Assembly: GCA_964017045.1 (NCBI GenBank)
Contig: OZ024808.1
Coordinates: 4,481,284-4,545,283, forward strand
Source of the DNA: Omphiscola glabra
Taxonomy: Eukaryota; Mollusca; Gastropoda; Lymnaeidae
Length of the DNA: 64,000 nt
Direction: 5' to 3'
The translations under genes and the position numbers were made by a program. Shown here one piece after another: positions 441-56,385 of this stretch (position 1 is the first letter of the stretch; every line of letters starts with the position of its first letter). A model generated the notes under the pieces. That model did not search any database, had not been told where the DNA came from, and worked only from the letters and a program-made list of their open reading frames with translations.

Positions 441-1190
441 TTCAATAGTGTTCATCAATGATGCTACTTTTTCCTCATCCAATATGGAAGGAATGGGTCG
501 TATAAGGACACGCATAGGAACTTCGTGGACTTCTGTAATGTGTGCACCATGTACAGTTAAGTGGTCTGACATGATCTTGCAAGGTAATTCCCTCTTTTCT
601 GTTATCTGTGTTTGGTCTTCTGTTCGAGACATGACTTCAGGTTCAGAATCAGATTCAAGTGTTATATCTAAGCCAGTTTCACTGCCCTTAAAATTATGAG
701 AATGAAGGCAAGGGCCTGAAGATATTCTATTTTTACAAAAAAATCCTGAAGTGAAACTTGAAGGAGACTGGCCATTTAATTGTTCAGCACACCTACCATT
801 AATAAATCTCATAAAACTCGAAGGAGGGCATGGCTTTGGCTTAAAACTTAACAGCTGGCTAAAGCCAAAGGGACAGCTGTTACTGTTACTGTTTGAAAAT
901 CCGCCTTTGAAATGGTGCTTAATAATTTGTTTATTTTCAGGAACAGATGAAAGACAAAATTTTGAATGTAAAATTGAAGTTAAACTTAACCATTTCAATA
1001 TGACTGCAAAAACATAATTTGTGCTCAGTATTGTAGAACTTAGTGAAAACGTTAAATTAAATTTAGGCTTTCGACTGCTGGCAGTGCTGTGGAATCCTAG
1101 GCCTAGACTTGGTCCTAAGCCAACGGAGACGGCAGACAAAGATCCTTGAAATCGGGATACATACGTATATCCTAGATAATGCTGCGTCAT
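441..1190 (-). CDS. SRXN1: Sulfiredoxin, first coding exon (partial gene)
   Basis: Sulfiredoxin reduces cysteine sulfinic acid in over-oxidised 2-Cys peroxiredoxins, using ATP and thiols. The last ~45 residues of this open frame (IxEVHEVPMxVLIRPIPSIL, then DEEKVxSLMxTIE) match the conserved N-terminal part of the fold, including the VLIRP strand. The frame ends at a 5' splice site after ...NTIE (GAA|GTTAGT, boundary at 441). The catalytic GGCHR motif is not in the window. The frame is open from an ATG at 1190, but ~205 residues precede the conserved core, much longer than the family's usual short leader. Methionines at 812, 632 and 572 are alternative starts. The upstream part is Ser/Phe-rich and could be a mitochondrial presequence or simply 5' UTR. 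Family call is firm; the start is not. Confidence 0.85.
1181..1190 (-). promoter_or_regulatory. Candidate antioxidant response element
   Basis: On the minus strand this reads ATGACGCAGC, a perfect fit to the NRF2/small-Maf element RTGACNNNGC. SRXN1 is a well-known NRF2 target in animals. The site coincides with the first ATG of the long open frame, so either that ATG is a promoter motif and translation starts further in, or the overlap is chance. Confidence 0.45.
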
Positions 1191-8332: not shown

Positions 8333-14156
<5,824 letters not shown>

Positions 14157-33454: not shown

Positions 33455-33648
33455 ATGGACAGCCATGCAATGACTATGGCCTCCATTGATATGGAAACAT
33501 CATTTGCCAACGGCAAGACACAAAATGGACACGCTCATCAAGGCCCAATGGCCTCAGTCCTCTCTGCACACAACATCAACTACATGGTGAAGGTGTCCAC
33601 AAAGTGCTGCCGGGGGAAAACTGATAAGCAAATATTATTTAATGTCTC
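33455..33648 (+). CDS. ABCG2: ABCG2 exon 1 (N-terminus)
   Basis: Start ATG in TGTAGCAATGG context, after an acceptor at 33,375. Encodes a variable N-terminus then VLSAHNINYMVKVSTKCCRG and KQILFNV, the lead-in to the ATPase domain. Donor TC|GTACGT, phase 2. Confidence 0.93.
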
Positions 33649-36600
33649 GTACGTAGAAAAATGGTGACACATTATATTACATTACATTTTTTTTGCTTTT
33701 TTGTTTTAAAATGGATATTAAAACACTATTGTACTAAACTGAATTTGAATGCTTTAAATATAGACAATTTTACTTATACAGTAACTCAAAAACTACTAAA
33801 ATTAAAATTGTTTGTGAAATATGGTTTTAAAAATAGGATTAAAGTATGTTTTTATTTCCTACAGGGGCATATTCAAAAAGGGCATGACTGCTATTTTAGG
33901 ACCGACGGGCTCAGGAAAATCATCGTGAGTCATTTAATTCTGGAAACTAAGTTATTATTATAATAAAAAAAATACAATAACTTCAACAAATTTTTTTTCA
34001 TCTCTCTTTAAGGCTGCTGAAGCTTTTAACTGCATCAAGTACACCTTTCTACTTTTCAGCTTTCTTGATGTGTTAGCTGGCCGGAAAGATCCAGAGGGTG
34101 TATCTGGACAACTCCTTTTGGATGGAAAACCTGTGCCTAAAAACTTCAAGTGCATGGTGGGATACGTTGTGCAGGTATTGTTGCAGTTTATTGGTGGGAT
34201 ATTTTGTGCAGGTATTGTTGCAGTTTATTGTTGGGATATGTTGTGCAGGTATTGTTGCAGTTTATTGGTGGATATGTTGTGCAGGTATTGTTGCAGTTTA
34301 TGTCAATCTTTGTCTTTTCCATTGGTTAATTCAAAAATTCTTAACACAATACTGTTGGTTTGTTTATGCAGGATGACGTTGTGATGGGAACTCTGTCTGT
34401 CAGAGAGAATTTTGCCTTCTCTGCTGCCCTAAGACTGCCAACGTCGGTCAAGGCCAACGAGAGAAAGGAGAGGATCAACCAGGTTATTAAAGAACTAGGT
34501 CTGGAGAGGTGCGCTGACACCAAGGTAAGAAATTTAGTTTTCCTACAACATTCGGTCTGGACAGGTGTGCTGACATCAAACGCGAGAATTATAGAATCGA
34601 AATGTTACACCCGAATATTAATTCTTTATATATTAGATTTATTTTTGATTATTAAATAAATTTAACCATTCAGAGGAAATGTAAATATAATCTTTTCAAT
34701 TTTCTTAGATGAATAGTATTTTTTTTTTCCAGCAGGGCAGTAGATTTGTTATATGTTTTGTTCTAAATATAGAATGTTTCTGTCAATCTTAATATGGAAT
34801 GTTTCTGTCAATCTTAATATGGAATGTTTCTGTCAATCTCAGGTTGGAAATGAATTTATCCGAGGAGTTTCAGGGGGAGAGAGGAAAAGATGCAACATTG
34901 GCATGGAGCTCATAATCTCCCCTGCTGTGCTATTTTTAGATGAGCCAACAACAGGTCTTGATGCCAATACAGCAAACACAGTTCTCATGTTTTTGAAAAG
35001 GTTTGCAATGTTGTCAGATCAGTGGTCCTCAAAATGAAATGAGCGATAAAATAAAGCTTTTTGGAAGCAGAGCTTAGTTTTGATTGAATGAAATTTTAAG
35101 AAACCTATACCTTAATTGAATAAAGTTCACTGGATTAATTTCATGGTCATTATTTTTTTTTCAGATTGTCTCGTAGAGGAAGGACCATTATTTTCTCCAT
35201 CCACCAACCCCGTTATTCCATCTATCGTCTGTTTGACAGTTTGATGCTCTTATCTCAAGGTCACACAGTGTATCACGGACCATCAGAGGAAGCTTTGGAG
35301 TTCTTCTCTTCACAAGGTTAGTATTAAGGTAGTACCATAAATTTACCAAAATTGTAGCAGAGGACTATATAGCAGAGGACTATATAGCAGAGGACTATAT
35401 AGCAGAGGACTATATAGCAGAGGACTATATAGCAGAGGACTATATAGCAGAGGACTATATAGCAGAGGACTATATAGCAGAGGACTATAGAGCAGAGGAC
35501 TATAGAGCAGAGGACTATATAGCAGAGGACTATATAGCAGAGGACTATATAGCATTTATTAGTAAATTTGTCCCATCTATGATCAACAGAGTTGCCACTT
35601 TTCCGAGTTATCCCGGGATTCCGGATTCGTGAGAATTAGTATTTTTCAGTTCCGGATTCGCGAGGCTAAATATTTTTCAGTTCCGGATTCGCGAGTTTCT
35701 ATTTTCTCTCGTTCTGGGTTCGCCAGTTACATTTTTCAAACACGGGCTCCTGGAAGGACCATCCATTCAGCGAAAAGCGAGTTTGTTTTTTGCTATAAAT
35801 AGAACAGGTACCTCGACCATCTCTCACTTCTGTTTGCGAGCGTCTCGTTTTTGTTTGCAAGCACCAGTAGCCAGGGCTACCACACCTTGGGAAATTTCCC
35901 AAGATCTTGCGAAATCACGACTCCGATTGGGATCTGGGGAATAAGTTTGAAAATCAAGCAAAACCTTGGGAAATATTAACAGGGGAAAGATTTTTTTTTT
36001 TACATATTTCGAAAAACGCAAACAATATATTATGTGATTAAAATTAATGTGAAAATAAAACAAAATAATTTTTAAAGTAACCAGGAAAACATTAATTGTG
36101 TTAATTCTTTTCTGGTTTCAATTTTTAAAACCACTCATACATAAATAAGAAATTAGGCTCAATGCTATTCGGATGTCATTTGTAGTAGTTTATTTTAGTA
36201 AAACTGAAGAATTAAGATTTCAAACGTATAGTACATTCAATTATCTTTCATTTGATACCTCATTTGATCTTACAAACCCAGCAATAATATTTTAAATCAT
36301 TTTTTAATATAAATCTCTCAATTCTGGTACCCATGTACCAATAGGTGCAGCCAAAGTTAATAATTAAAGAACGAAGTGGCTTTTGGTACCTGGCTTTTGT
36401 TGTTTGCAAGACCAAATGAGGTATCAAATGAAAGATAATTGGATGGACTATACGTTTGTAAACTTAATTCTTCAGTTTAAATAAAAAAAACTACCACAAA
36501 GGACATCCGAATAGCATTAGACAAAATGGACCCAGACATGCAGCACCGCCATTCGCACCCGGGTACCATTAGGCTCAATGCTATTCGGATATCAATTTTG

Positions 36601-39600
36601 TTAGTTTATTTTAGTTAAAATGAAGAATTATGCAAATTAAATGTCTTCAACTGCCTGTGATTTGTCCCCAGTTAGTAGTTTTGTGGTTAAATATATGCAT
36701 ATAGTATAGGATATAGTATGAGAAAAGTGTATGAATTTTAAGAGTTTCGTTAGGGTTGGAAAATTTGGTAGATGAAGTTTCAGGGTTCAAGAAATTTTTA
36801 GAAAGAGATTTCAGGGTTCACAGCTTTCAGTGAGTGGCACCCCTGAATTGATCAGTGATATGGTAAAATATTTATTAACCTCTTATAAAAATTGTATGAC
36901 AGAAAACTTCCAAAAACAATAGATGGTCAGAAAATAATTATGCCCAATATAAAAAAAAATTGAATTTTTCCATTTATCCATGTTTCACCATTTGAATGTT
37001 TTAATACAATATGTTAATTTAAAAAAAATTATTATATTTAAGTATAGTGTCCACTTATAGGCCCATAAGCTACATTAGTCAAGGGAGCAACAAATGTTAA
37101 GTTTTGTTCTATTTCTCCATTATTAGGCTACATCTGTCAAGTGAACAACAAATGTTAAGTTTTGTTCTATTTCTCCATTTTTAGGCTACATCTGTCAAGT
37201 GAACAACAAATGCTAAGTTTTGTTCTATTTCTCCATTATTAGGCTACATCTGTCAAGAACACAACAAATGTTCAGTTTTTTTCTATTTCTCCATTTTTAG
37301 GCTACATCTGTCAAGTGAACAACAAATGTTCAGTTTTTTTCTATTTCTCCATTTTTAGGCTACATCTGTCAAGTGAACAACAAATGTTAAGTTTTGTTCT
37401 ATATCTCCATTTTTAGGCTACATCTGTCAAGTGAACAACAAATGCTAAGTTTTGTTCTATTTCTCCATTTTTAGGCTACATCTGTCAAGTGAACAACAAA
37501 TGTTAAGTTTTGTTCTATTTCTCCATTTTTAGGCTACATCTGTCAAGTGAACAACAAATGTTACGTTTTGTTCTATTTCTCCATTTTTAGGCTACATCTG
37601 TCAAGTGAACAACAAATGTTAAGTTTTGTTCTATTTCTCCATTTTTAGGCTACATCTGTCAAGTGAACAACAAATGTTAAGTTTTTTTCTATTTCTCCAT
37701 TTTTAGGCTACATCTGTCAAGTGAACAACAAATGTTAAGTTTTGTTCTATTTCTCCATTTTTAGGCTACATCTGTCAAGTGAACAACAAATGTTAAGTTT
37801 TGTTCTATTTCTCCATTTTTAGGCTACATCTGTCAAGTGAACAACAAATGTTACGTTTTGTTCTATTTCTCCATTTTTAGGCTACATCTGTCAAGTGAAC
37901 AACAAATGTTAAGTTTTGTTCTATTTCTCCATTTTTAGGCTACATCTGTCAAGTGAACAACAAATGTTAAGTTTTGTTCTATTTCTCCATTTTTAGGCTA
38001 CATCTGTCAAGTGAACAACAAATGTTAAGTTTTGTTCTATTTCTCCATTTTTAGGCTACATCTGTCAAGTGAACAACAAATGTTAAGTTTTGTTCTATTT
38101 CTCCATTTTTAGGCTACATCTGTCAAGTGAACAACAAATGTTAAGTTTTGTTCTATTTCTCCATTTTTAGGCTACATCTGTCAAGTGAACAACAAATGTT
38201 AAGTTTTGTTCTATTTCTCCATTTTTAGGCTACATCTGTCAAGTGAACAACAAATGTTAAGTTTTTTTCTATTTCTCCATTTTTAGGCTACATCTGTCAA
38301 GTGAACAACAAATGTTCAGTTTTGTTCTATTTCTCCATTTTTAGGCTAAATCTGTCAAGTGAACAACAAATGCTAAGTTTTGTTCTATTTCTCCATTTTT
38401 AGGCTACATCTGTCAAGTGAACAACAAATGTTAAGTTTTGTTCTATTTCTCCATTTTTAGGCTACATCTGTCAAGAACACAACAAATGTTCAGTTTTTTT
38501 CTATTTCTCCATTTTTAGGCTACATCTGTCAAGAACACAACAAATGTTCAGTTTTTTTCTATTTCTCCATTTTTAGGCTACATCTGTCAAGAACACAACA
38601 AATGTTCAGTTTTTTTCTATTTCTCCATTTTTAGGCTACATCTGTCAAGTGAACAACAAATGTTAAGTTTTGTTCTATTTCTCCATTTTTAGGCTACATC
38701 TGTCAAGTGAACAACAAATGTTCAGTTTTTTTCTATTTCTCCATTTTTAGGCTACATCTGTCAAGTGAACAACAAATGTTAAGTTTTGTTCTATTTCTCC
38801 ATTTTTAGGCTACATCTGTCAAGTGAACAACAAATGCTAAGTTTTGTTCTATTTCTCCATTTTTAGGCTACATCTGTCAAGTGAACAACAAATGTTAAGT
38901 TTTGTTCTATTTCTCCATTTTTAGGCTACATCTGTCAAGTGAACAACAAATGTTAAGTTTTGTTCTATTTCTCCATTTTTAGGCTACATCTGTCAAGTGA
39001 ACAACAAATGTTAAGTTTTGTTCTATTTCTCCATTTTTAGGCTACATCTGTCAAGTGAACAACAAATGTTCAGTTTTTTTCTATTTCTCCATTTTTAGGC
39101 TACATCTGTCAAGTGAACAACAAATGTTAAGTTTTGTTCTATTTCTCCATTTTTAGGCTACATCTGTCAAGTGAACAACAAATGCTAAGTTTTGTTCTAT
39201 TTCTCCATTTTTAGGCTACATCTGTCAAGTGAACAACAAATGTTAAGTTTTGTTCTATTTCTCCATTTTTAGGCTACATCTGTCAAGTGAACAACAAATG
39301 TTAAGTTTTGTTCTATTTCTCCATTTTTAGGCTACATCTGTCAAGAACACAACAACCCACCTGATTTCTTTTTGGATGTCATTAACGGAGACCCAACGAC
39401 ATTTGCCGCTAATGGCATGAGCATTGAAAAGGAAGTGGAATCTGACTTTGAAAGTAAGCTGACACAATTCTATTGTTAAGACATGAAACTTGCTTCAAAT
39501 TGAGTCTTTCGTATAAACTGAAATTATTCATTTTAAACAGAGGTTCCCATGAAATATGCTATAGCTAGAATAGAGACCATCACACACAACAATTGGTCCT

Positions 39601-42600
39601 CTCACGAGACAGTCGGTCATTAGATGCACTGTTGTATTTCTATTGAAGAACTAAGATCAGTGCTTGACTTTTTCATCAGGGGTCTATTACCAAAATAGAA
39701 AGGAGGCCAACGATTGTTCAAACAAACAAAAAATAATTTGATTTTTTTTTCTATTATGTAACAAAATTATTTAGTTTTCAACACAACTCATGCATATATT
39801 ATTTTAATCACTGCCATAAACCTCATGTAGCCAGCATCATCGGATAACATATTTTTTTTGTAATATTAAAGCACCGAAACTACGTGTCGGCATTGGATGC
39901 CAGGATCAAATTTGTATCCATGCCATAGTATCCACAGCAGCAATCACTGGCAAAAATGCCATTAACATGATTCAATTCAGTGAATAGGTGTAGTGATATC
40001 ATCTAATGTCATAGAAACCTCTCTAATAAGCCAGCTCCCTTTCAGATCTGTCTGTAGCTGATAGTGAGCTGCCAAGTAAGAACAATTTCAGACTTTTTAC
40101 ATATTCCCTTTGTATAACCCTTTTTGTTGTGTTCACTGGATGTTTCACTTAAGAAAGAAAATAACTCATGCTAATAAAATTGTTCCTGCCTGGGGATGGT
40201 ATGAGTTTGTGTTTACCTGAGAATACAACAAAAAGTGCACCAAGGGAGAACGTTGTCAAAATTATTCTCCCAAGAAACAACCAGCACAGTTCCTTTAATT
40301 ATGATTTTTTTTTGTCACAGATTTTACAAAATTAATTTCAAATGCATTATTGCAATTGTCACTTCTGAGCATTGTGGGAAATGACTGTTAGAATGCCAAA
40401 CTTTGAAAAAAAAGTTTTTTAGTGACATAAAATATACTTGTATCAGTTTACAAACCAGTGATTAGTTGTATCTGTGTTAAATGTCTGTTGCTTTCAAATA
40501 CCCCTAAAAAAAAATTAAATTCTTGTCTGTAAAGTTCAATCAGTTATCTTGTAATGTTACATAAGCATTCTCCTTTGTTGTTGTTGTTTTTTGTTTTTTT
40601 TCACACAGTGTTTCTCAAAGTGGGAAATATTTATGAGCATGACATAGTTGGTGGTTGGGAGGAGAAGGGTCTGGGTAGAGGCTTAAACCATAGGGCATAT
40701 TTTTCTATGATATCAGTATGTTAGTGATTATTGTGTTTGCAAAATTTTAGAACCATTGCTTGAGGGTAAATGATTAAATACTTTGTGCCTGAAATAATTA
40801 ACAAGATAAAATACACTAAATACTATTTAATCTCACTGGTTCTATAACGAATTTACTTTTGGTATTAGCCATTTCTATGTTGTATTTAACAATTTCAATA
40901 TTGTTCTTAACCATTTTCTGTTTTTAAATCCCCAATGTCTCAGTGAATTTATGAAATATTTTATGGTAAATTGGCTAGTTAAGTAATGATCAGTACAAGT
41001 GGCCTGTTTGACCTTTTTCTCCCACTGTGAAAATAATTAATAGAGATCTCACCATTTTCAAGATAATTAATAGAGATATCCCTATTGGAAGATAATTATT
41101 AGAGATCTCCCCATTGAGAGGATAATTAATAGAGATCTCCCCATTTGGAAGATAATTAAGGGAGATCCACATTATTTACAGTGTTCACTCAACAGATAAT
41201 TAATTGGGATCCTCTGTATGTAGATGTTTGTTATAGTGTTATGAAATCAATATATATTTATATAATTTCTAATTATTCTCTACTGACTGGCTGTAACTAA
41301 AAACACGCATAACAAATATCACAGAGATGAAATAAGAAATGTTCTCCCCCCCCCCCCCCCCCCCGGTCTTAAATATAGTAAATTTATAAGTTTGTAAATT
41401 TATGTTATTCTATATTTAGACCGTCAAGTTACATAGGCAGTTTCTTTAGGTTCTTCGCTTTTCTACTTTTAACGAAGACCTTGATTAAATTGCACACTGA
41501 GAATTTGCAAATTTTCTTGCCACAGTTTCTTATGGAGTCTTGATTGAAACAATTAGATGAATGAGACACAAACAATTGGTGTAAATAAAACAGTGTGTTT
41601 TAAGCTTCAAATATGATGGCACTACGCACTCATTCAAAAGTTTGGGCGAATGCCTTCATCAGCACAACAAAAAACATTATTATAAATTAAATATACAACA
41701 AAGATCAGAAGAACGGAATGAAAGTGGGTAGAAGTACAATATCAAACATAACAGAAAAAAAAGACATTGCTGCTATGTAAAATTGGGAATTTGGTTTATG
41801 CCGTATGGAGTCAACGTACAAAATCTTTTTATTCCATGTCCACATAGTATAAACATGAGATCATCTGACACACAGAGTAAAGCATTTTAGTTTACAGTTT
41901 TCTCACATAATTTAAACTTGTTCAGCAGAAATACAAAGACTTCAAACATCACATTTGTTTTTTGGTTTAAATATTAAAAAAAATTATTTTGTTTGTTTGC
42001 TGTATAGCACCACAAAGTCAACATGAAAAGTTGGTGGAAGGATTCAAAAACTCAATTTGGAACAAGAGGTAACTCTTTTCTTTTTTGTGTGTTTTTGGCT
42101 ACTGTTCTTTATTGGACCAGTTAAATTATAAGAACCAATGGCATGAATCAAACTGCAATAACATCTAGATTTTTTTTCTTTGTGATTTTTCTTTAAGTTG
42201 TATTTTTGATTAGGCCTATATAAAAATTCATGTTTTTCGTTGCTCAGACTTCAAGAAGAAGTTGGCAGTATATACAACAAATTTGAAGCTCAGGGAGGCC
42301 TGAAGGGTGAACAGCACAAAGCTGTTGATTATGTTACATCATTCGGACATCAAGTAAGACCCAAGGAACATCTTTATGAAGAGAAAAAAATTACATTTAT
42401 TAAAATAAAATGTTGTATTAGAACAGTGGTTCTCAACCTTTCTAACGCAGCAACCCTCTAATACATTTCCTCATGTTGTGGCGACCCCCAGCCACAAAAT
42501 TATTTTCGTTGCTACTTTATAAATGTGGAGTATATGTGTTTTGAGAAGGTCTTAGGCGACCCCTGTGAAAGGGTCATGTGACACCCAAAGTGGTCGCGAC

Positions 42601-45600
42601 CCACAGGTTGAGAACCGCTGTATTAGAATTTGAACTTAATATTAGTTTTGTAAATGTAGGTCTATGACTGAACTTTTGAATTGTACAAGAATTGTTATAC
42701 AATGCTGCGTAATGTAAATATTAAAACCAACAATGGTTGTATTTATTTTAGTTATTGGGTAGTTGAAATAAATGTTGGGGGGTAAACAGGTTTTTTGAAA
42801 TTATTTCTCGAAATATTTATTGACAAGAAAAATACACTGCTTATATCAGTATATCTCTGATATAATATCAGTAAATCTCTGATGTTACAATGTAGTCAAT
42901 TGACACTTAAAACTCCAGTGTGGTTTTTATTATGAAAATACAAGAAACTTACACACCTGTTCAGTTAAACATTTTGATACTTAAAACTTTTTGCTTAAAA
43001 TATGGGTGTGTCTTATTTGCCAATGATCAAACTTTTTTTTTTTCTTTTTAAAAATAAGTATAAAAAGGGTATGTGTCGTAAATGAACAGCTGCGTCTAAA
43101 GAGCCCATAAAATAACCTAAAGAATCTGTCTACCATCTTAGAAAACAAAATAGTCTTTAACTTCTTTCAATTTTGTGAATACTGTTTATGAACGTTTCAG
43201 GTGGTGGTTGTGGCCAAAAGAGCTACGATAAATCTTATCAGAAATCCACAGACAAGTGTCCTCACAGTAAGAAATGCCTTTTCCCTGATTTAATTTGAAT
43301 AGTTTATTTTACTAAATAGTTTTATTTAAACTGCAGACTTTATACTTATTTTGTGCCTCTGGGCTTCTCTGACAATTCATAACGAAAAATTACAAACATA
43401 ATTTTTGTACAGCTGGCCACAACTTTAGTCTTTGCCATCATCATCAGCGCCATATACTGGCAACTAGGGGACGATCCGAGCCACGCCTTCAAAGACAGGT
43501 TAGCATTTTTCTTGTCCATTTAGAGTTTACTCCCTTTTACTGTTGAGATGAGAATTCTAAATTTTTGAAACATTATGATCTGTTACAAAATTTAATTTTC
43601 ACGTGCCATATGTGAGCCAAATTTAAATTTCACGTGCCATAGGTGAGCCAAATTTAATTTCTATGTGCCATAGGTGAGCCAAATTTAAATTTCACGTGCC
43701 ATAGGTGAGCAAAATTTAATTTTCACGTGCCATAGGTGAGCCAAATTTAAATTTCACGTGCCATAGGTGAGCCAAATTTAATTTTCACGTGCTATAGGTG
43801 AGCCAAATTTAAATTTCACGTGCCATAGGTGAGCCAAATTTAATTTTCACGTGCCATAGGTGAGCCAAATTTAAATTTCACGTGCCATAGGTGAGCCAAA
43901 TTTAAATTTCACGTGCCATAGGTGAGCCAAATTTAAATTTCACGTGCCATAGGTGAGCCAAATTTAATTTTCACGTGTTATAGGTGAGCCAAGCGCCCCA
44001 AAACTCTCCTATCTCTGTTATTATAAAATAAGTATTTCTTCAATCTGGAAGCCACTGTATTGCACACACAAAAACATGTCACATTTCAGATGTTTCCACC
44101 ATGACACGTGTTTGTTTGTTTGTTTGTTTAAGAAATGCCGTCTTTTAAAACGTTCCCAATTTAGAAAAATTGCCTACATTTAATGATGGACCTTTTTTTA
44201 AATAAAATCCCGGCTCGCTGATCTAAGGGGGACATTTACATTTGGGGGGCGGTGGTGGTGGGCTCAATTTCTGTTTTTAATATCTACATTAATTATTTTT
44301 TTTTGCTTTTTAACAATTGAATACAATTCCAAAATGTGTTGCTCTATCCCAACAGATCGGGAGTGTTATTTTTCCTCATCATGAATCAGTTGTTCTTCAA
44401 TATGTCTGCTGTCGAGGTGTTCATCAATGAAAGGAAAATTTTTATGTAAGTAAATTTAGATTCATTTGTCCCCCATTTTGATTTTAAAGATAAATAGTTG
44501 ATGTTTGGGACAGTCTGATGCTAGATGTTTGGGGACGGAGTCATGTTGGATGTTTGGGGATGGAGTCATGTTGGATGTTTGGGGATGGTGAAGGTTGGAT
44601 GTTTGGGGATGGAGTCATGTTGGATGTTTGGGGATGGTGATGTTGGATGTTTGGGGAATGAGTCATGTAAGTTGTTTGGATTAGATGTTTTGTGATAATG
44701 TCATGTTGGTTGTTTGGGGAATGAGTCATTTTAAATGTTTGGGGACTGAGTCATGTTAGATCAGCGGTTCTCAAACTTCCTAATGCCGCGACACTTTAAT
44801 ACAGTTCCTCGTGTTGTGGCGACCCCCAACCACAAAATTATTTTTGTTTCTTCTTCATAATTGTAAAGTATGTGTTTTCCGATGGTCTTAGGCGACCCCT
44901 GAGAAAGGGTCCTTTGACCCCCAAAGGGATCTTGAACCACTGTGTTAGATGTTTTGTGATGGTGTAATGTTGGATGTTTGGGGAATGAGTCATGTTGGTT
45001 GTTTGGGGAATGAGTCATGTTGGATGTTTGGGGAATGAGTCATGTTGGATTTTTGGGGATGGTGTAATGTTGGATGTTTGGGGAATGAGTCATGTTGGAT
45101 TTTTGGGGATGGTGTAATGTTGGATGTTTGGGGAATGAGTCATGTTGGATGTTAGGCTATTCAGACACTTAATTGCTACCAGTATAAAAATAAATACACA
45201 AGAAGTATTTAAGATTTATCAGACCTTAAAAAAGAGAGCATCATCATTGTCAAATCTAGCTGAAGTCTTTGGTGTTAACTTGTGAAATGTTGTTTCTACT
45301 TTGAATTCTGTTCTCAATAACTGGATCTTAAAAGATCTTTGATTAACTTGTACATGATACACAAAGATCTTTGATTAACTTGTACATGATACGGTGCCCG
45401 AGCCACGTGCAGATTTTTTTTTTTTGATACCCACTTGAACGTGTCAACAGGCATGAAAGTATTGTGTCAATGTCTATGTCTATGTCCACAGGCATGAAAG
45501 TATTGTGCCAATGTCTATGTCCACAGGCATGAAAGTATTGTGCCAATGTCTATGTCCACAGGCATGAAAGTATTGTGTCAATGTCTATGCCCACAGGCAT

Positions 45601-48600
45601 GAAAGTATTGTGTCAATGTCTATGCCCACAGGCATGAAAACATCAGTGGGTTCTACAGAGTGTCTGTCTACTTCCTGGTCAAAGTGCTTTTTGATATCAT
45701 ACCTCTGAGAATGATTCCTGTCAGCCTACTGTCCGTCGTCGTTTACTTTGCTGTTGGTAAGTGTCTTGTTGCACAATTCATTACACATTTGTAAGGTACG
45801 ATAAACAGATACATTACTCTTCTGTCAAATATAAAATACATATATAGATTTGTCTTTTTTTCCCCACAAGGCATGAAACTTTCCCATTGTTGCATCAGCC
45901 ATATCATTTGTGCCCATGAGGTATCTTACTTTCCCATTGTTGTATCAGCCATGTCATTTGTGTGTTTTGTCCCCACAAGGTATCTTACTTTCCCATTGTT
46001 GTATCAGCCATGTCATTTGTGTGTTTTGTCCCCACAATGTATCTTACTTTCCCATTGTTGTATCAGTCATGTCATTTGTGTGTTTTGTCCCCACAAGGTA
46101 TCTTACTTTCCCATTGTTGTATCAGCCATGTCATTTGTGTGTTTTGTCCCCACAAGGTATCTTACTTTCCCATTGTTGTATCAGTCATGTCATTTGTGTG
46201 TTTTGTCCCCACAAGGTATCTTACTTTCCCATTGTTGTATCAGCCATCTCTTTTGTGTGTTTTGTCCCCACAAGGTATCTTACTTTCCCATTGTTGTATC
46301 AGCCATGTCTTTTGTGTGTGTGTCAATGACCACACTAAATGTGCTACTAAAATGTGTGTATTAGGAGAGCATAATTTGTTTTCTTGTTATATTTCATGTC
46401 ATTCCAATACTAAATACTCTTAGGACAGTGCAAATATTTTGTCTCATCATTATGTCAGTAAGAAATTGTCAATGGTGTCATTACGTACAGTGTTTAACTA
46501 GATCCTTACAGAAAAGTAGGAACATATCTGGGCTCCAAAAAAATCTTTTCAGTAGTCCAGACCTGTTTACTCTTACGATTTTGGAGTACAATGTATGATT
46601 TTGAGGTGTATAGATTATATATACTGTATGTTTATTTTTTTACTATTAAGATAATGTATTGAATATGTCGTGATGAAATCGTAAGATTTTAAGAGATTGA
46701 GGGTAAACAGGTCTGGTAGTTTTAGGTATAGTAATATATCTTAAAAGACAGTATTAAATACAGTTTTTCTTCTATGACAGGTCTCCATCCGGGTGCTGAT
46801 CACTTTTTCCTGTTCGTGTTGTGTCTGTTCTGCACCACAATGGCAGCCGCCGGCCTGTGCTTCCTCATCAGCTCCACTGTACGTGTGTTTGCTGTGGCGC
46901 AGCTTCTCCTGGCCCTGTGTTATGTGCTTATGATGGTAAGAAGAAATACGTCATGACAAGGTGTTACACATATTCACATTATTGCGCATCCTATGATCAT
47001 TTTAAAAATGGTGTGATTTGATTTGTGTTAAGATCTTTTAGCATTTCTCTGACCTGATTTTTTCATACCAATCTCTCTCAATGATAGGGGACCAATCTCT
47101 CTCAATGGTAGGGGACCAATTTCTCTCTCAGTGATAGGGGACCAATCTCTCTCAGTGATAGGGACCAGTCTCTCTCAGTGATAGGGGACCAGTCTCCCTC
47201 AGTGATACGGGACCAATCTCTCTCAGTGATTGTGGACCAGTCTCTCTCAGTGATAGGGGACCAATCTCTCTCAGTGATAGGGACCAGTCTCTCTCAGTGA
47301 TAGGGGACCAATCTCTCTCAGTGATAGGGGACCAATCTCTCTCAGTGATAGGGGACCAGTCTCTCTCAGTGATAGGGGACCAATCTCTCTCAGTGATAGG
47401 GGACCAGTCTGTCTCAGTGATAGGGGACCAATCTCTCTCAGTGATAGTGGACCAGTCTCTCTCTGTGATAGGGGACCAATTTCTCTCTCAGTGATAGGGG
47501 ACCAATCTCTCTCAATGACAGCGGACCAATCTCTCTCTGTGATAGGGGACCAATTTCTCTCTCAGTGATAGGGGACCAATCTCTCTCAATGACAGCGGAC
47601 CAATCTCTCTCAATGACAGCAGACCAATCTCTCTCAGTGCTAGGGGACCAATCTCTCTCAATGACAGCGGACCAATCTCTCTCAATGACAGCGGACCAAT
47701 CTCTCTCAATGACAGGGGACCAATCTCTCTCAATGACAGCGGACCAATCTCTCTCAATGACAGCGGACCAATCTCTCTCAATGACAGCGGACCAATCTCT
47801 CTCAATGACAGCGGACCAATCTCTCTCAATGACGGGACCAATCTCTCTCATGACAGGGGACCAATCTCTCTCAATGACAGCGGACCAATCTCTCTCAATG
47901 ACAGGGGACCAATCTCTCTCAATGACAGCGGACCAATCTCTCTCAATGACAGGGGACCAATCTCTCTCAATGACAGCGGACCAATCTCTCTCAATGACAG
48001 GGGACCAATCTCTCTCAATGACAGCGGACCAATCTCTCTCAATGACAGCGGACCAATCTCTCTCAATGACAGCGGACCAATCTCTCTCAATGACAGGGGA
48101 CCAATCTCTCTCAATGACAGGGGACCAATCTCTCTCAATGACAGCGGACCAATCTCTCTCAATGACAGGGGACCAATCTCTCTCAATGACAGCGGACCAA
48201 TCTCTCTCAATGACAGCGGACCAATCTCTCTCAATGACAGCGGACCAATCTCTCTCAATGACAGCGGACCAATCTCTCTCAATGACAGGGGACCAATATC
48301 TCTCAATGACAGCGGACCAATCTCTCTCAATGACAGCGGACCAATCTCTCTCAATGACAGCGGACCAATCTCTCTCAATGACAGCGGACCAATCTCTCTC
48401 AATGACAGCGGACCAATCTCTCTCAATGACAGGGGACCAATCTCTCTCAATGACAGCGGACCAATCTCTCTCAATGACAGGGGACCAATCTCTCTCAATG
48501 ACAGCGGACCAATCTCTCTCAATGACAGGGGACCAATCTCTCTCAATGACAGCGGACCAATCTCTCTCAATGACAGCGGACCAATCTCTCTCAATGACAG

Positions 48601-51600
48601 GGGACCAATCTCTCTCAATGACAGCGGACCAATCTCTCTCAATGACAGCGGACCAATCTCTCTCAATGACAGGGGACCAATCTCTCTCAATGACAGGGGA
48701 CCAATCTCTCTCAATGACAGGGGACCAATCTCTCTCAATGACAGGGGACCAATCTCTCTCAATGACAGGGGACCAATCTCTCTCAATGACAGGGGACCAA
48801 TCTCTCTCAATGACAGCGGACCAATCTCAATGACAGGGGACCAATCTCTCTCAATGACAGCGGACCAATCTCTCTCAATGACAGCGGACCAATCTCTCTC
48901 AATGACAGCGGACCAATCTCTCTCAATGACAGCGGACCAATCTCTCTCAATGACAGCGGACCAATCTCTCTCAATGACAGGGGACCAATCTCTCTCAATG
49001 ACAGCGGACCAATCTCTCTCAATGACAGCGGACCAATCTCTCTCAATGACAGCGGACCAATCTCTCTCAATGACAGGGGACCAATCTCTCTCAATGACAG
49101 CGGACCAATCTCTCTCAATGACAGCGGACCAATCTCTCTCAATGACAGGGGACCAATCTCTCTCAATGACAGCGGACCAATCTCTCTCAATGACAGCGGA
49201 CCAATCTCTCTCAATGACAGGGGACCAATCTCTCTCAATGACAGGGGACCAATCTCTCTCAATGACAGGGGACCAATCTCTCTCAATGACAGGGGACCAA
49301 TCTCTCTCAATGACAGGGGACCAATCTCTCTCAATGACAGGGGACCAATCTCTCTCAATGACAGCGGACCAATCTCTCTCAATGACAGGGGACCAATCTC
49401 TCTCAATGACAGGGGACCAATCTCTCTCAATGACAGGGGACCAATCTCTCTCAATGACAGCGGACCAATCTCTCTCAATGACAGCGGACCAATCTCTCTC
49501 AATGACAGGGGACCAATCTCTCTCAATGACAGGGGACCAATCTCTCTCAATGACAGGGGACCAATCTCTCTCAATGACAGCGGACCAATCTCAATGACAG
49601 GGGACCAATCTCTCTCAATGACAGCGGACCAATCTCTCTCAATGACAGCGGACCAATCTCTCTCAATGACAGCGGACCAATCTCTCTCAATGACAGCGGA
49701 CCAATCTCTCTCAATGACAGCGGACCAATCTCTCTCAATGACAGGGGACCAATCTCTCTCAATGACAGCGGACCAATCTCTCTCAATGACAGCGGACCAA
49801 TCTCTCTCAATGACAGCGGACCAATCTCTCTCAATGACAGGGGACCAATCTCTCTCAATGACAGCGGACCAATCTCTCTCAATGACAGCGGACCAATCTC
49901 TCTCAATGACAGGGGACCAATCTCTCTCAATGACAGCGGACCAATCTCTCTCAATGACAGCGGACCAATCTCTCTCAATGACAGGGGACCAATCTCTCTC
50001 AATGACAGGGGACCAATCTCTCTCAATGACAGGGGACCAATCTCTCTCAATGACAGGGGACCAATCTCTCTCAATGACAGGGGACCAATCTCTCTCAATG
50101 ACAGGGGACCAATCTCTCTCAATGACAGCGGACCAATCTCTCTCAATGACAGGGGACCAATCTCTCTCAATGACAGGGGACCAATCTCTCTCAATGACAG
50201 GGGACCAATCTCTCTCAATGACAGCGGACCAATCTCTCTCAATGACAGGGGACCAATCTCTCTCAATGACAGGGGACCAATCTCTCTCAATGACAGCGGA
50301 CCAATCTCTCTCAATGACAGGGGACCAATCTCTCTCAATGACAGGGGACCAATCTCTCTCAATGACAGGGGACCAATTATCATTTTAACTATTGGATCTT
50401 CCTTTAATTTCTTTTTTAATGAATAAATAGAATTAAGGTTCCATGGGTAAAGTGTTGTTTGCTCTCTTTCAGCCCTCTGTCAGCCATTCTTTCATAAGCA
50501 GTCATTCCAAATACAGACATAAGTTCTGTTGGCAAAGTTCTTAACAATTTAGGAGATAATAAAATACCTTGATTCAGTTGATGTTTTACTGTTGAGTGCT
50601 TCCTCGGCAGAGCGGGACTCCAAGAATGTTAACTAAAATAATAACCTTTTTTTGTGTTAATTCATAATTATAATGTAAAATCCCCTTCTCCATTGTTAGA
50701 TCGTAAAATGCTATCTATGAAACATAGTTGGTGAAATGTAAAATCTGGCAATATTCCTCATGTTTTAATGCATCACAAATTGCAACTCTAAAGTATATTT
50801 AAAAAAAAAAAATATTTGAAAGCAACATTAAATTATTGTATTTCACATTGATAACATTGACTTTTTTTAAACGAATGCTGCCACTATGACAAGGGCATTT
50901 TTATATTTGAACAGCTGCTTGGAGGATTCCTGATCAACTTTGATTCAGTGGGTCCCTGGCTACACTGGGCACAGTACCTCAGTCTGTTCAAGTATGCTCT
51001 ATCTGTAAGTGCTTTATAACATCAGCCCAAAGTCACTGGGAACGACTGGGGTTTTCTGGGTTTTGATTAGGGTTTTCTGGGCAGGGTCCTCACACAGTCG
51101 GGAAAACGGGAAATAGTCGGGATTTCCTCCAAATTTTTTTCCGGCCGTGAAAACCGGGAAATTGAGCATTCTAGTAAGGAAATTTTCAGAATAGTCGGGA
51201 ATTTTTTAATTCACAATTTAATAATAAAAAAAAAAAAACTATGTGAATCGCTTCAATTATGCCCCCATAGTATTTTATCGACTGGATTTTACTTTAGTAT
51301 TAGTTTCGACTTATCTGCGTATGCGTTGAATCATTCTTCCGATGCAGATCTCATTTAAAATTGAATAAATATTACAGGTCTACCACACCTTGGGAAATTT
51401 CCCAAGATCTTGGGAATTCACTACCCCCCATTGGCATCTGGGGAATAATTTTGAAAATCAGGCAAAACATTGGGAAATATTAACAGGCAGAAGATTTTTT
51501 TTTACATATTTTGAAAAACGCAAACATGTGATAAAAATGAAAGTGAAAACAAAGCAAAACAATAATAAAGTAACAAGGAAAAAATTAATTGTTTTAATTT

Positions 51601-54600
51601 TTAAAACCACTCATAAATGTCTAAGAAATCTTCTGAAATTAAAGTTAATATTATGAATTATTAAAAAGTTAATAATTAAAGAAATTCAATTTTCTCTGAT
51701 TTTTTTTACGTTGATATAAATTACATCAAGGTGTTGAATTTTTATCAAATAGACCTTGTACACCATAGGCATAGAACAGTCTCAACAATAAATAAACTGA
51801 TAATAAATCTTGAAAACTTAAATGAAATCAATATAGACTATTACTATTAATATATTAGAATTTGTGGTGGGGGGGGGGGGCGGGGCGGTAGGCTCGGAAA
51901 CTTTATCATTAAGCTATTACACATTAGCAACAAGAAGAAAAACATTACAAGCCAAGAGTGAACGATTGTGTTCAATCAAGAATCCCTAGTAATTTCCATT
52001 GAAATAATCTCAGTTAATTTGAGCATGTCCACATCAACAGATGTTTAAATAATTATTACAGTATACATGCATTGAAATATGTCAAATGACTTTATATTTT
52101 TATGATATTATGGATGTACTACTACTGTATTATTGAGTCCAGGCATTGGAAAGTTAATGGTTAGTCAAGATAGTATTACCGTATATTATATTGTTTTGTA
52201 AAGTTTATTTATTTTACTATTGATAGCATTATATTTTAAAACATGTACCAGGATATTGGATGGAAATTTTTAATGAAAAAAGCTTGAAAATCGGTCGCAA
52301 TAATGTCGATAAAGCCGCATTTTATATAGTCAGGAATTTTTATTTTTCAGTTGGGGAAAAAGTTGGGGAAAAAGTAAGGAATTTAGTTTTGAAAAAAATG
52401 TGAGAACCATGTCTGGGGTTTTCTTTTTTAAGGGGGAAGTTGTGAGAGGGGGGTGGGAAATAGTTTACCACAAGGGTAAATAATGTTATCTTATACAAGG
52501 GCGTGTCTGTATAATGTTATTTTATTCAAGGGCATGTCTATATAATGTTATCTTATACAAGGGCATGTCTATATAATGTTATCTTATACAAGGGCGTGTC
52601 TGTATAATGTTATCTTATACAAGGGCATGTCTATATAATGTTATCTTATTCAAGGGCATGTCTATATAATGTTATCTTATACAAGGGCATGTCTATATAA
52701 TGTTATCTTATACAAGGGCATGTCTATATGTTATCTTATACAAGGGCATGTCTATATAATGTTATCTTATACAAGGGCATGTCTATATAATGTTATCTTG
52801 TGTACCATTGTAAATGTCCTGATCATCTGTGTTAGGGTGTGCCACAAGTTAGTGTTGTTTAGGTATGCAGAATGTTTAAATGTAAACTTCCTTTAAGTTA
52901 TTTATCTAGGTGACTCGGAATTGAGTAGAACATGTACAGAATAGTGTAGGCCTTGTACAGAATAGTGTAGGACATGTACAGAATAGTGTAGGCCATGTAC
53001 AGAATAGAGTAGAACATGCACAGAATAGCGTAGGACATGTACAGAATAGTGTAGGACATTTACAGATTAGTGTAGACTATTTCATACAATTGTCACTTTT
53101 ATAACTTTGTGTACCCACAGGCCCTGTACATCAATGAGTTTAAAGGAAGGATGTTTTGTGCCAATGAGACATCCTGGTAAGTTGGATCATCTTTATTGTC
53201 AGCTACTCCATATCGCACCACCTGATTCTAGGGGTTGCCACTTTTCATATCACAACCGGTTTTTGGGGGTGACACTTATATCACACAATCTGTTTCTGAG
53301 GATGACCTCATATCACACAACCTGTTTCTGAGGGTGACCTCATATCACACAACCTGTTTCTGGGGCTGACTTCATATCACACATCCTGTTTCTGAGGGTG
53401 ACCTCATATCACACAACCTGTTTCTGAGGGTGACCTCATATCACACAACCTGTTTCTGGGGGTGACCTCAAATCACACAACCTGTTTCTGGGGCTGACCT
53501 CATATCACACAACCTGTTTCTGAGGGTGACCTCATATCACACTACCTGTGTCTGGGGCTGACCTCATATCACACAACCTGTTTCTTAGGGTGACCTCATA
53601 TCACACAACCTGTTTCTGAGGGTGACCTCATATCACAAAACCTGTTTCTGGGGCTGACCTCATATCACACAACCTGTTTCTGAGGGTGACCTCATATCAC
53701 ACAACCTGTTTCTGGGGGTGACCTCATATCACACTACCTGTGTCTGGGGCTGACCTCATATCACACAACCTGTTTCTGAGGGTGACCTCATATCACACAA
53801 CCTGTTTCTGGGGGTGACCTCATATCACACAACCTGTTTCTGAGGGTGACCTCATATCACACAACCTGTTTCTGGGGGGTGACCTCATATCACACAACCT
53901 GTTTCTGGGGGGTGACCTCATATCACACATCCAGTTTCTGAGGGTGACCTCATATCAGACTACCTGTTTCTGGAGCTGACCTCATATCACACAACCTGTT
54001 TCTGAGGGTGACCTCTTATCACACAACCTGTTTCTGGGGGTGACCTCATATCACACAACCTGTTTCTGGGGCTGACCTCATATCACACAACCTGTTTCTG
54101 AGGGTGACCTCATATCACACTACCTGTGTCTGGGGCTGACCTCATATCACACAACCTGTTTCTGAGGGTGACCTCATATCACACTACCTGTGTCTGGGGC
54201 TGACCTCATATCACACAACCTGTTTCTGAGGGTGACCTCATATCACACAACCTGTTTCTGAGGGTGACCTCATATCACACAACCTGTTTCTGGGGCTGAC
54301 CTCATATCACACAACCTGTTTCTGAGGGTGACCTCATATCAAACAACCTGTTTCTGGGGGTGACCTCATATCACACTACCTGTGTCTGGGGCTGACCTCA
54401 TATCACACAACCTGTTTCTGAGGGTGACCTCATATCACACAACCTGTTTCTGGGGGTGACCTCATATCACACAACCTGTTTCTGAGGGTGACCTCATATC
54501 ACACAACCTGTTTCTGGGGGTGACCTCATATCACACAACCTGTTTCTGGGGGTGACCTCAAATCACACAATCTGTTTCTGAGGGTGACCTCTTATCACAC

Positions 54601-56147: not shown

Positions 56148-56385
56148 GACTCGTACATAACTTAGGACTAGTAAACGACATAGGGCTAGTAAACAACTTT
56201 TGACTAGTAAATGGCATAGGACTCGTAAACAACTTAGGACTAGTGAATGGCATAGGGCTAGTAAACAACTTGGAACTGGAAAGTACCTTCAGCCTGTTGT
56301 GTGTACATTTTTTTCATAATTTGTCTTTTGGTCAGTTATTTGCAATCAAATTTTTATGTAAATAAAAACACATTTTTAAAGCAAA
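56148..56385 (+). other. ABCG2 3' UTR with small tandem repeat
   Basis: 56,150-56,275 holds ~6 variants of ACTAGTAAACAACTTAGG. The poly(A) signal follows. Confidence 0.8.
56361..56366 (+). terminator. ABCG2 poly(A) signal
   Basis: AATAAA 214 bp after the stop codon, followed by T-rich sequence. Confidence 0.75.

What the first reader, a model, noticed from the sequence alone, without database searches (positions are those of the whole stretch)
37075..39453. Thirty-eight decoy copies of a 3' splice site in front of ABCG2 exon 7
Seen: an exact 58-bp period in which every unit holds the pyrimidine tract, AG and the first 15 bases of exon 7; junctions at 37,127 + 58n, with the real exon at n=38. 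Most copies would add ~10 codons and then a TAA, truncating the protein after the ATPase domain. A few copies retain the AAGAACACAAC of the true exon, suggesting that the exon edge seeded the array or that conversion occurs. Inference: an exon edge was captured and amplified, so the cell must choose 1 of 39 nearly identical acceptors, or copy number tunes the productive ABCG2 mRNA level. I know of no described locus with this many clones of one acceptor.
Basis: partly seen in the sequence, partly recalled or inferred. Interest (0 to 1): 0.88.

Follow-up and report, generated by a model that had tools for sequence, protein, structure and literature searches.

The report
Exon edge copied 38 times over
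In the ABCG2 transporter gene of what is likely a pond snail close to Lymnaea stagnalis, the first bases of exon 7 and the splice signal before them are repeated 38 times in a row in the preceding intron, so the splicing machinery would meet 39 near-identical landing sites, of which only the last is predicted to give the full-length protein.

Summary
Confirmed: 39 head-to-tail 58-bp units (37069-39330), without indels, run straight into coding exon 7 (39331-39453) of an ABCG2 gene modelled here as 17 exons and 646 aa without internal stop; nearest protein Lymnaea stagnalis, 98% identical. Thirty-eight upstream acceptors carry a pyrimidine tract, AG and about 25 exon-like bases; 35 of 38 equal the true site from -20 to +3. 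The exon edge is the likely seed: the residue changed in most copies is conserved in all 8 snail proteins aligned. A decoy junction would not just add 10 codons: it keeps all downstream units in the exon, and 38 of 38 end in premature stops (278, 287 or 315 aa), predicted decay targets. It is not a one-off: in this gene exon 13's acceptor (5 extra), exon 3's donor (3 extra) and, decayed, exon 4's donor are duplicated too; minisatellites fill 52% of intron bases and exon edges are not enriched in them. Likely working: exon definition picks the exon-adjacent site; nearby decoys leak a little; multiple occupancy may slow splicing. Donor-side minisatellites are published (IFI6, ABCA7); ten paper searches listed no acceptor-side one. 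No RNA, reads or other individuals could be examined.

The parts
37069..39330 (+). 58-bp array, 39 units; first unit without an AG before its exon-like part
37127..39273 (+). 38 decoy acceptors: first exon-like base at 37127+58n, n=0-37
39331..39453 (+). ABCG2 coding exon 7 (123 nt, phase 1), true acceptor at 39331, donor AAA|GTAAGC
37243..37300 (+). unit of the AAC class (25 of 25 exonic bases kept; further ones at 38461, 38519, 38577)
33455..56147 (+). ABCG2-like gene model, 17 coding exons, 646 aa, no internal stop
34155..34301 (+). 37-bp x4 array over the exon 3 donor (true 34174; copies 34211, 34248, 34284)
34554..34594 (+). single decayed duplicate of the exon 4 donor edge (34498-34537), donor GT lost
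45442..45639 (+). 35-bp x5.5 array over the exon 13 acceptor (true 45632; copies 45451, 45492, 45527, 45562, 45597)

Best explanation
The 58-bp array is most likely a tandemly amplified copy of the intron 6/exon 7 edge, and splicing would mostly still join at the one acceptor next to the full exon, because only that site and the nearest few decoys are predicted to define a normal-sized exon. Shown: the array runs from the intron into the exon; 38 units carry a near-identical acceptor; all 38 decoys lead to premature stops. Inferred: a local duplication across the edge started it, and unequal exchange or slippage amplified it; only the last unit continues into the rest of the exon, so growth stays on the intron side. 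Inferred: U2AF and U2 can settle on many units of one pre-mRNA; pairings at distant units make exons of up to 2327 nt and would mostly fail, or give short transcripts removed by nonsense-mediated decay. Predicted: nearly all junction reads at 39331, a small leak at 39273, 39215 and 39157 (exons of 181, 239 and 297 nt), and some loss of splicing efficiency.
For: Array and acceptors. Sites are not told apart locally: with a matrix from the gene's other 15 acceptors the true site scores 5.32, the decoys 0.75-5.32 with median 5.32, and 35 of 38 are identical over -20 to +3, so context must decide. Polarity: Q272, G273, C276, Q277, E278, N280 and N281 at the exon edge are invariant in all 8 proteins aligned (window + 7 snail proteins, paralogues included); the common decoy triplet turns E278 into V, so it is the derived form. 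Products: 38 of 38 decoys stop 149-2295 nt before the exon 7/8 junction. The 17 exons are 56-194 nt and 9 of 16 introns exceed 800 nt, the setting in which exon definition is expected (general knowledge). The L. stagnalis protein P0001 is joined as at the true site. [quoted passage not shown] a strong-site version bound two U2AF or two U2, spliced poorly, and spliced several-fold better when occupancy was reduced (PMC5389562, sections 12 and 15 read). ABCA7: a 25-bp VNTR holding the exon 18 donor gives low one-unit retention (2 +/- 1% as I read the order of the figures) (PMC5954066, passages).
Against: No RNA evidence at all. A first-come model would favour decoys, transcribed up to 2.2 kb before the true site. 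The splice matrix is weak (15 sites): 50 of 862 other intronic AGs in the gene score at least as high as the median decoy. The P0001 join may be a prediction and is from another lineage. PMC5389562 says proximal exon length had been reported (1986 work) to affect acceptor choice, unlike its own result, and it tests two sites in human extract, not 39 in a snail. In ABCA7 unit retention did not change with array length, while skipping of the next exon rose, so a length effect here could be exon 7 skipping instead of leak.
Confidence: 0.62

Rival explanations
1. Copy-number rheostat: the array has been kept because its length sets the level of productive ABCG2 mRNA, through multiple U2AF/U2 occupancy or poison extended exons.
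For: 38 of 38 decoys are unproductive; double occupancy inhibits splicing; in ABCA7 expression falls with VNTR length.
Against: No sign of selection for the array: 52% of intron bases of this gene lie in minisatellites and exon edges are depleted, not enriched, in arrays (3 of 32 against a rotation mean of 15). Near-identity of units is what homogenisation alone gives.
Confidence: 0.14
2. Decoys are used often and ABCG2 is mostly spliced unproductively, or a 287-aa ATPase-only product is made.
For: Decoy acceptors equal the true one locally and are transcribed first.
Against: Duplicated acceptors in vitro went exclusively to the distal site; a search with the 287-aa form gave 26 proteins, none named Lymnaea, best identity 81%; the gene model is intact, so it is likely expressed and needed.
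Confidence: 0.1
3. Assembly artefact: copy number inflated or array misjoined.
For: One assembly, no reads; the genome search did not complete.
Against: 11 unit types in mixed order, 39 units without indels; similar arrays all through the window; the exon edge itself joins an intact gene.
Confidence: 0.05
4. The four AAC units arose by gene conversion from the true exon.
For: They match exon 7 over all 25 shared bases.
Against: 4 of 4 also carry C30 and T37 in the intronic part, absent from the exon; 3 further units carry C30 and T37 without AAC.
Confidence: 0.15

Closest known systems
Human IFI6 (6-16) minisatellite with multiple splice donors (Turri, Cuin, Porter 1995)
   Same: A minisatellite at an exon edge whose units are splice sites; two downstream repeat units serve as donors, giving three mRNAs (one passage in PMC4526556; title in the PMC2572611 reference list).
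   Different: Donor side, not acceptor side. The 1995 paper is not held, so nothing in it was checked directly.
Human ABCA7 intron 18 VNTR (PMC5954066, passages)
   Same: Tandem array that includes a true splice site of an ABC transporter gene, each unit starting with the donor GT; retention of one unit shifts the frame; longer arrays go with lower expression.
   Different: Donor side; 25-bp unit, about 12 to 427 copies; length affects skipping of the next exon, not unit retention; in the passages the unit starts at the donor, whereas here 25 exon-like bases are in the unit.
Laboratory substrates with duplicated 3' splice sites (Reed and Maniatis 1986, citation only; PMC5389562, sections 12, 14, 15 read)
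   Same: Identical acceptors, the upstream one followed by a short piece of the true exon (14, 55 or 205 nt; here 25).
   Different: Engineered, two sites, human extracts.
NAGNAG and other alternative 3' splice sites (general knowledge)
   Same: Several acceptors compete for one donor.
   Different: 58-nt spacing, 39 sites, the whole acceptor region duplicated.

Membership tests
Minisatellite | Head-to-tail units of roughly 10-100 bp | tested here: met
   58 bp x 39, no indels
Minisatellite | Copy number varies among individuals | not testable with these tools
   one assembly only; own-genome search did not complete
Splice-site-bearing minisatellite (IFI6, ABCA7) | Array includes a true exon edge and its units repeat the splice site | tested here: met
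   39331 lies inside the array; 38 of 38 upstream copies keep AG
Splice-site-bearing minisatellite (IFI6, ABCA7) | Extra sites are used in mRNA | not testable with these tools
   no RNA; truncated-protein search found nothing from Lymnaea
Splice-site-bearing minisatellite (IFI6, ABCA7) | Donor side, as in both published cases seen | tested here: not met
   acceptor at exons 7 and 13; a donor array exists at exon 3 of the same gene. Filed as a variant of the kind
Duplicated or mutually exclusive exons | Each copy is a whole exon with its own donor | tested here: not met
   units hold 25 of 123 exonic positions; the best GT of the unit, CAA|GTGAAC, is matched or beaten by 23% of 1300 GTs of the gene region
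Recursive splice sites | AG directly followed by GT | tested here: not met
   AG|GC in 39 of 39
Dispersed mobile element | Copies elsewhere in the genome | tested here: inconclusive
   39 of 39 matches in the 64-kb window lie in the array; the rest of the genome could not be searched

The most novel reading that the evidence does not exclude
A natural 39-acceptor array works as a cis sponge for U2AF and U2 snRNP: each extra unit lowers productive exon 7 splicing, so a fast-mutating minisatellite creates heritable, graded ABCG2 dosage, and this minisatellite-rich genome keeps making such splice-edge rheostats on both donor and acceptor sides.
Probability: 0.14. Interest if true: 0.82.

Novelty: new variant of a known kind. 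Interest (0 to 1): 0.58.

Why it matters
How a cell picks one of several equal 3' splice sites has been studied with two engineered copies; this is a natural series of 39 sites that are locally almost the same and differ mainly in distance to the exon's donor. Counting junctions along it would separate exon definition (use falls off away from the exon), first-come choice (use highest at 37127) and multiple-occupancy block (low splicing overall). It also shows an acceptor-side counterpart of the known donor-side splice-site minisatellites, and a gene in which exon edges have been duplicated at least four times, which bears on how repeat-rich genomes keep their genes readable.

Tried and rejected
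Enrichment of arrays at exon edges: rejected. 3 of 32 edges lie in arrays against a rotation mean of 15.0, P(>=3) 0.997 (exon 1 start then set 15 nt too late). Higher-order 6-unit repeat: looked suggestive by eye, not significant (2 matches, P 0.13). A degenerate 40th unit left of 37069: local alignment score 17 against a shuffle mean of 9.6, 0.8% of 500 single-base shuffles reach it, but in an AT-rich flank and out of register, so not claimed. Exon 5's neighbouring 25-bp array as another captured edge: no similarity (P 0.84). Microexon or recursive splicing through CAA|GTGAAC: the donor-like site is weak. Rfam: no family in the window at gathering scores. A second gene's acceptor array at 13374-13599: units hold TTTCAG|AAC and the last opens a 125-nt open stretch, but my coding scan did not pick it, PDB and Pfam gave nothing above cut-off, so it stays putative.

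Branch-point-like motifs (TTAAG, CTAAG, TTCAG, TTACG about 26 nt before AG) were read by eye; no call tests them. NMD in this snail is general knowledge, untested. Own-genome comparison, RNA and population data could not be had.

Papers: ten searches ran, only listings seen, capped lists (one search listed 12 of 41); that no acceptor-side array is in print is a statement about those listings only, and subscription papers are mostly absent.

Full report
Observation. The window holds 39 head-to-tail units of 58 bp at 37069-39330; 20 of 39 equal the consensus and there are no indels. A 32-base acceptor core matches 39 times at 58-bp steps (38 decoys and the true site) and 0 times in 100 shuffles. 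The last unit runs without a seam into 39331-39453, which translates to GYICQEHNNPPDFFLDVINGDP... and matches human ABCG2 residues 281-309 of chain 6eti_A at E 7.4e-07.

Gene. Nearest protein: Lymnaea stagnalis P0001, 98% identical; a paralogue P0002 (84%) lies on a contig of the same length, probably the same one. The window is therefore likely from L. stagnalis or a close lymnaeid. Two short elements with hAT-like ends and 8-bp target duplications in the introns look to me, from memory, like the SPIN family reported in this snail; that label comes from no call.

Anatomy of a unit. 25 exon-like bases (22 of 25 identical to exon 7) are followed by 33 intronic bases ending in TATTTCTCCATTTTTAG. 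About 26 nt before the AG there is a branch-point-like TTAAG, CTAAG, TTCAG or TTACG (by eye). 35 of 38 decoys equal the true acceptor from -20 to +3, and the median score equals that of the true site (5.32). So the local acceptor cannot be what tells them apart. The matrix is small, and 50 of 862 other intronic AGs score as high.

Origin. The exon-edge residues Q272, G273, C276, Q277, E278, N280 and N281 are invariant in 8 of 8 aligned proteins. The common decoy triplet would change E278 to V, so the exon form is ancestral and the array came from the exon edge (inference). The four units that keep the exon triplet all carry C30 and T37; the other combinations are 28 TGA-A-G, 3 TGA-C-T, 2 TGA-A-T, 1 TGA-C-G and 1 GGA-A-G. 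This linkage favours an ancestral unit class over conversion from the exon, which lacks those intronic sites.

What decoy use would do. Because all downstream units stay in the exon, a decoy adds 58 to 2204 nt. Of 38 decoys, 27 give 287 aa, 10 give 315 aa and 1 gives 278 aa, with stops 149-2295 nt before the next junction: predicted NMD targets lacking the membrane part. A search with the 287-aa form gave 26 proteins, none named Lymnaea, best identity 81%; this is weak negative evidence.

Not a one-off. Of 32 exon edges of the gene, 4 have a copy in the adjoining intron that no shuffle of 200 reaches: the exon 3 donor, the exon 4 donor, the exon 7 acceptor and the exon 13 acceptor. The exon 3 donor has 3 extra copies with the same score as the true one, and the exon 13 acceptor 5 extra, 4 of them as strong as the true one or stronger. 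The exon 4 copy has lost its GT. Use of any of those 5 acceptors or 3 donors would also truncate the protein (479-491 aa and 136-163 aa). The stop codon lies in an 18-bp array. Minisatellites (period 10 or more) cover 32% of the window and 52% of the gene's intron bases; only 3 of 32 edges lie inside arrays against 15 expected from rotation, so edges are avoided rather than sought. The plain cause is therefore a genome dense in young minisatellites, some of which start across an exon edge and survive because the working site stays at the exon end.

How it likely works. [quoted passage not shown] with stronger sites two U2AF and two U2 bound at once, splicing was poor, and a competitor that reduced occupancy raised it several-fold (PMC5389562, sections 12 and 15). 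That paper notes an earlier report that proximal exon length affects the choice. In ABCA7, a VNTR holding the exon 18 donor gives a low level of one-unit retention unaffected by length, while next-exon skipping rises and expression falls with length (PMC5954066 passages). I infer: exon definition favours 39331; exons of 181, 239 and 297 nt from the last three decoys are the plausible leak; the rest of the array is mostly silent but may cost efficiency. The gene's exons are 56-194 nt and 9 of 16 introns exceed 800 nt, which suits exon definition.

Novelty. Splice-site minisatellites are known on the donor side (IFI6: passage in PMC4526556; ABCA7). The ten paper searches listed none on the acceptor side. 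I file it as a new variant of a known kind. No RNA, read or population test could be made; the genome search was unreachable in six tries.

Noticed in passing
34155-34301: Exon 3 donor of the same gene repeated in a 37-bp x4 array; four CAG|GTATTG donors with equal, low score (-0.83).
   Followed up: partly
45442-45639: Exon 13 acceptor repeated in a 35-bp array; 5 upstream copies, one weak (45451) and four as strong as the true site or stronger.
   Followed up: partly
34498-34594: Exon 4 donor edge duplicated once 56 bp downstream; the copy has lost its GT.
   Followed up: partly
13374-13703: 42-bp x5.4 array whose units hold TTTCAG|AACCCTCC and read in frame as a 14-residue repeat; the last unit opens into an open stretch with a good donor at 13703. 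Putative exon of another gene; no family match.
   Followed up: partly
56139-56271: 18-bp array starting on the ABCG2 stop codon (TAG at 56145-56147).
   Followed up: no
1-64000: Minisatellites of period 10 or more cover 32% of the window (54 merged loci), 52% of ABCG2 intron bases; arrays of 138 x 24 bp (47067-50377) and 81 x 32 bp (53251-55847) fill two introns.
   Followed up: partly
42424-42620 and 44762-44942: Two short hAT-like elements with 8-bp target duplications (TATTAGAA, TGTTAGAT); they look like the SPIN family by recall.
   Followed up: partly
441-686 (minus strand): Open stretch that looked to me like sulfiredoxin by recall; the Pfam scan gave no family.
   Followed up: partly
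about 17290, 18750, 19480: Dispersed repeat with GGCGTAGC...GGGGGCAG starts, seen by eye.
   Followed up: no
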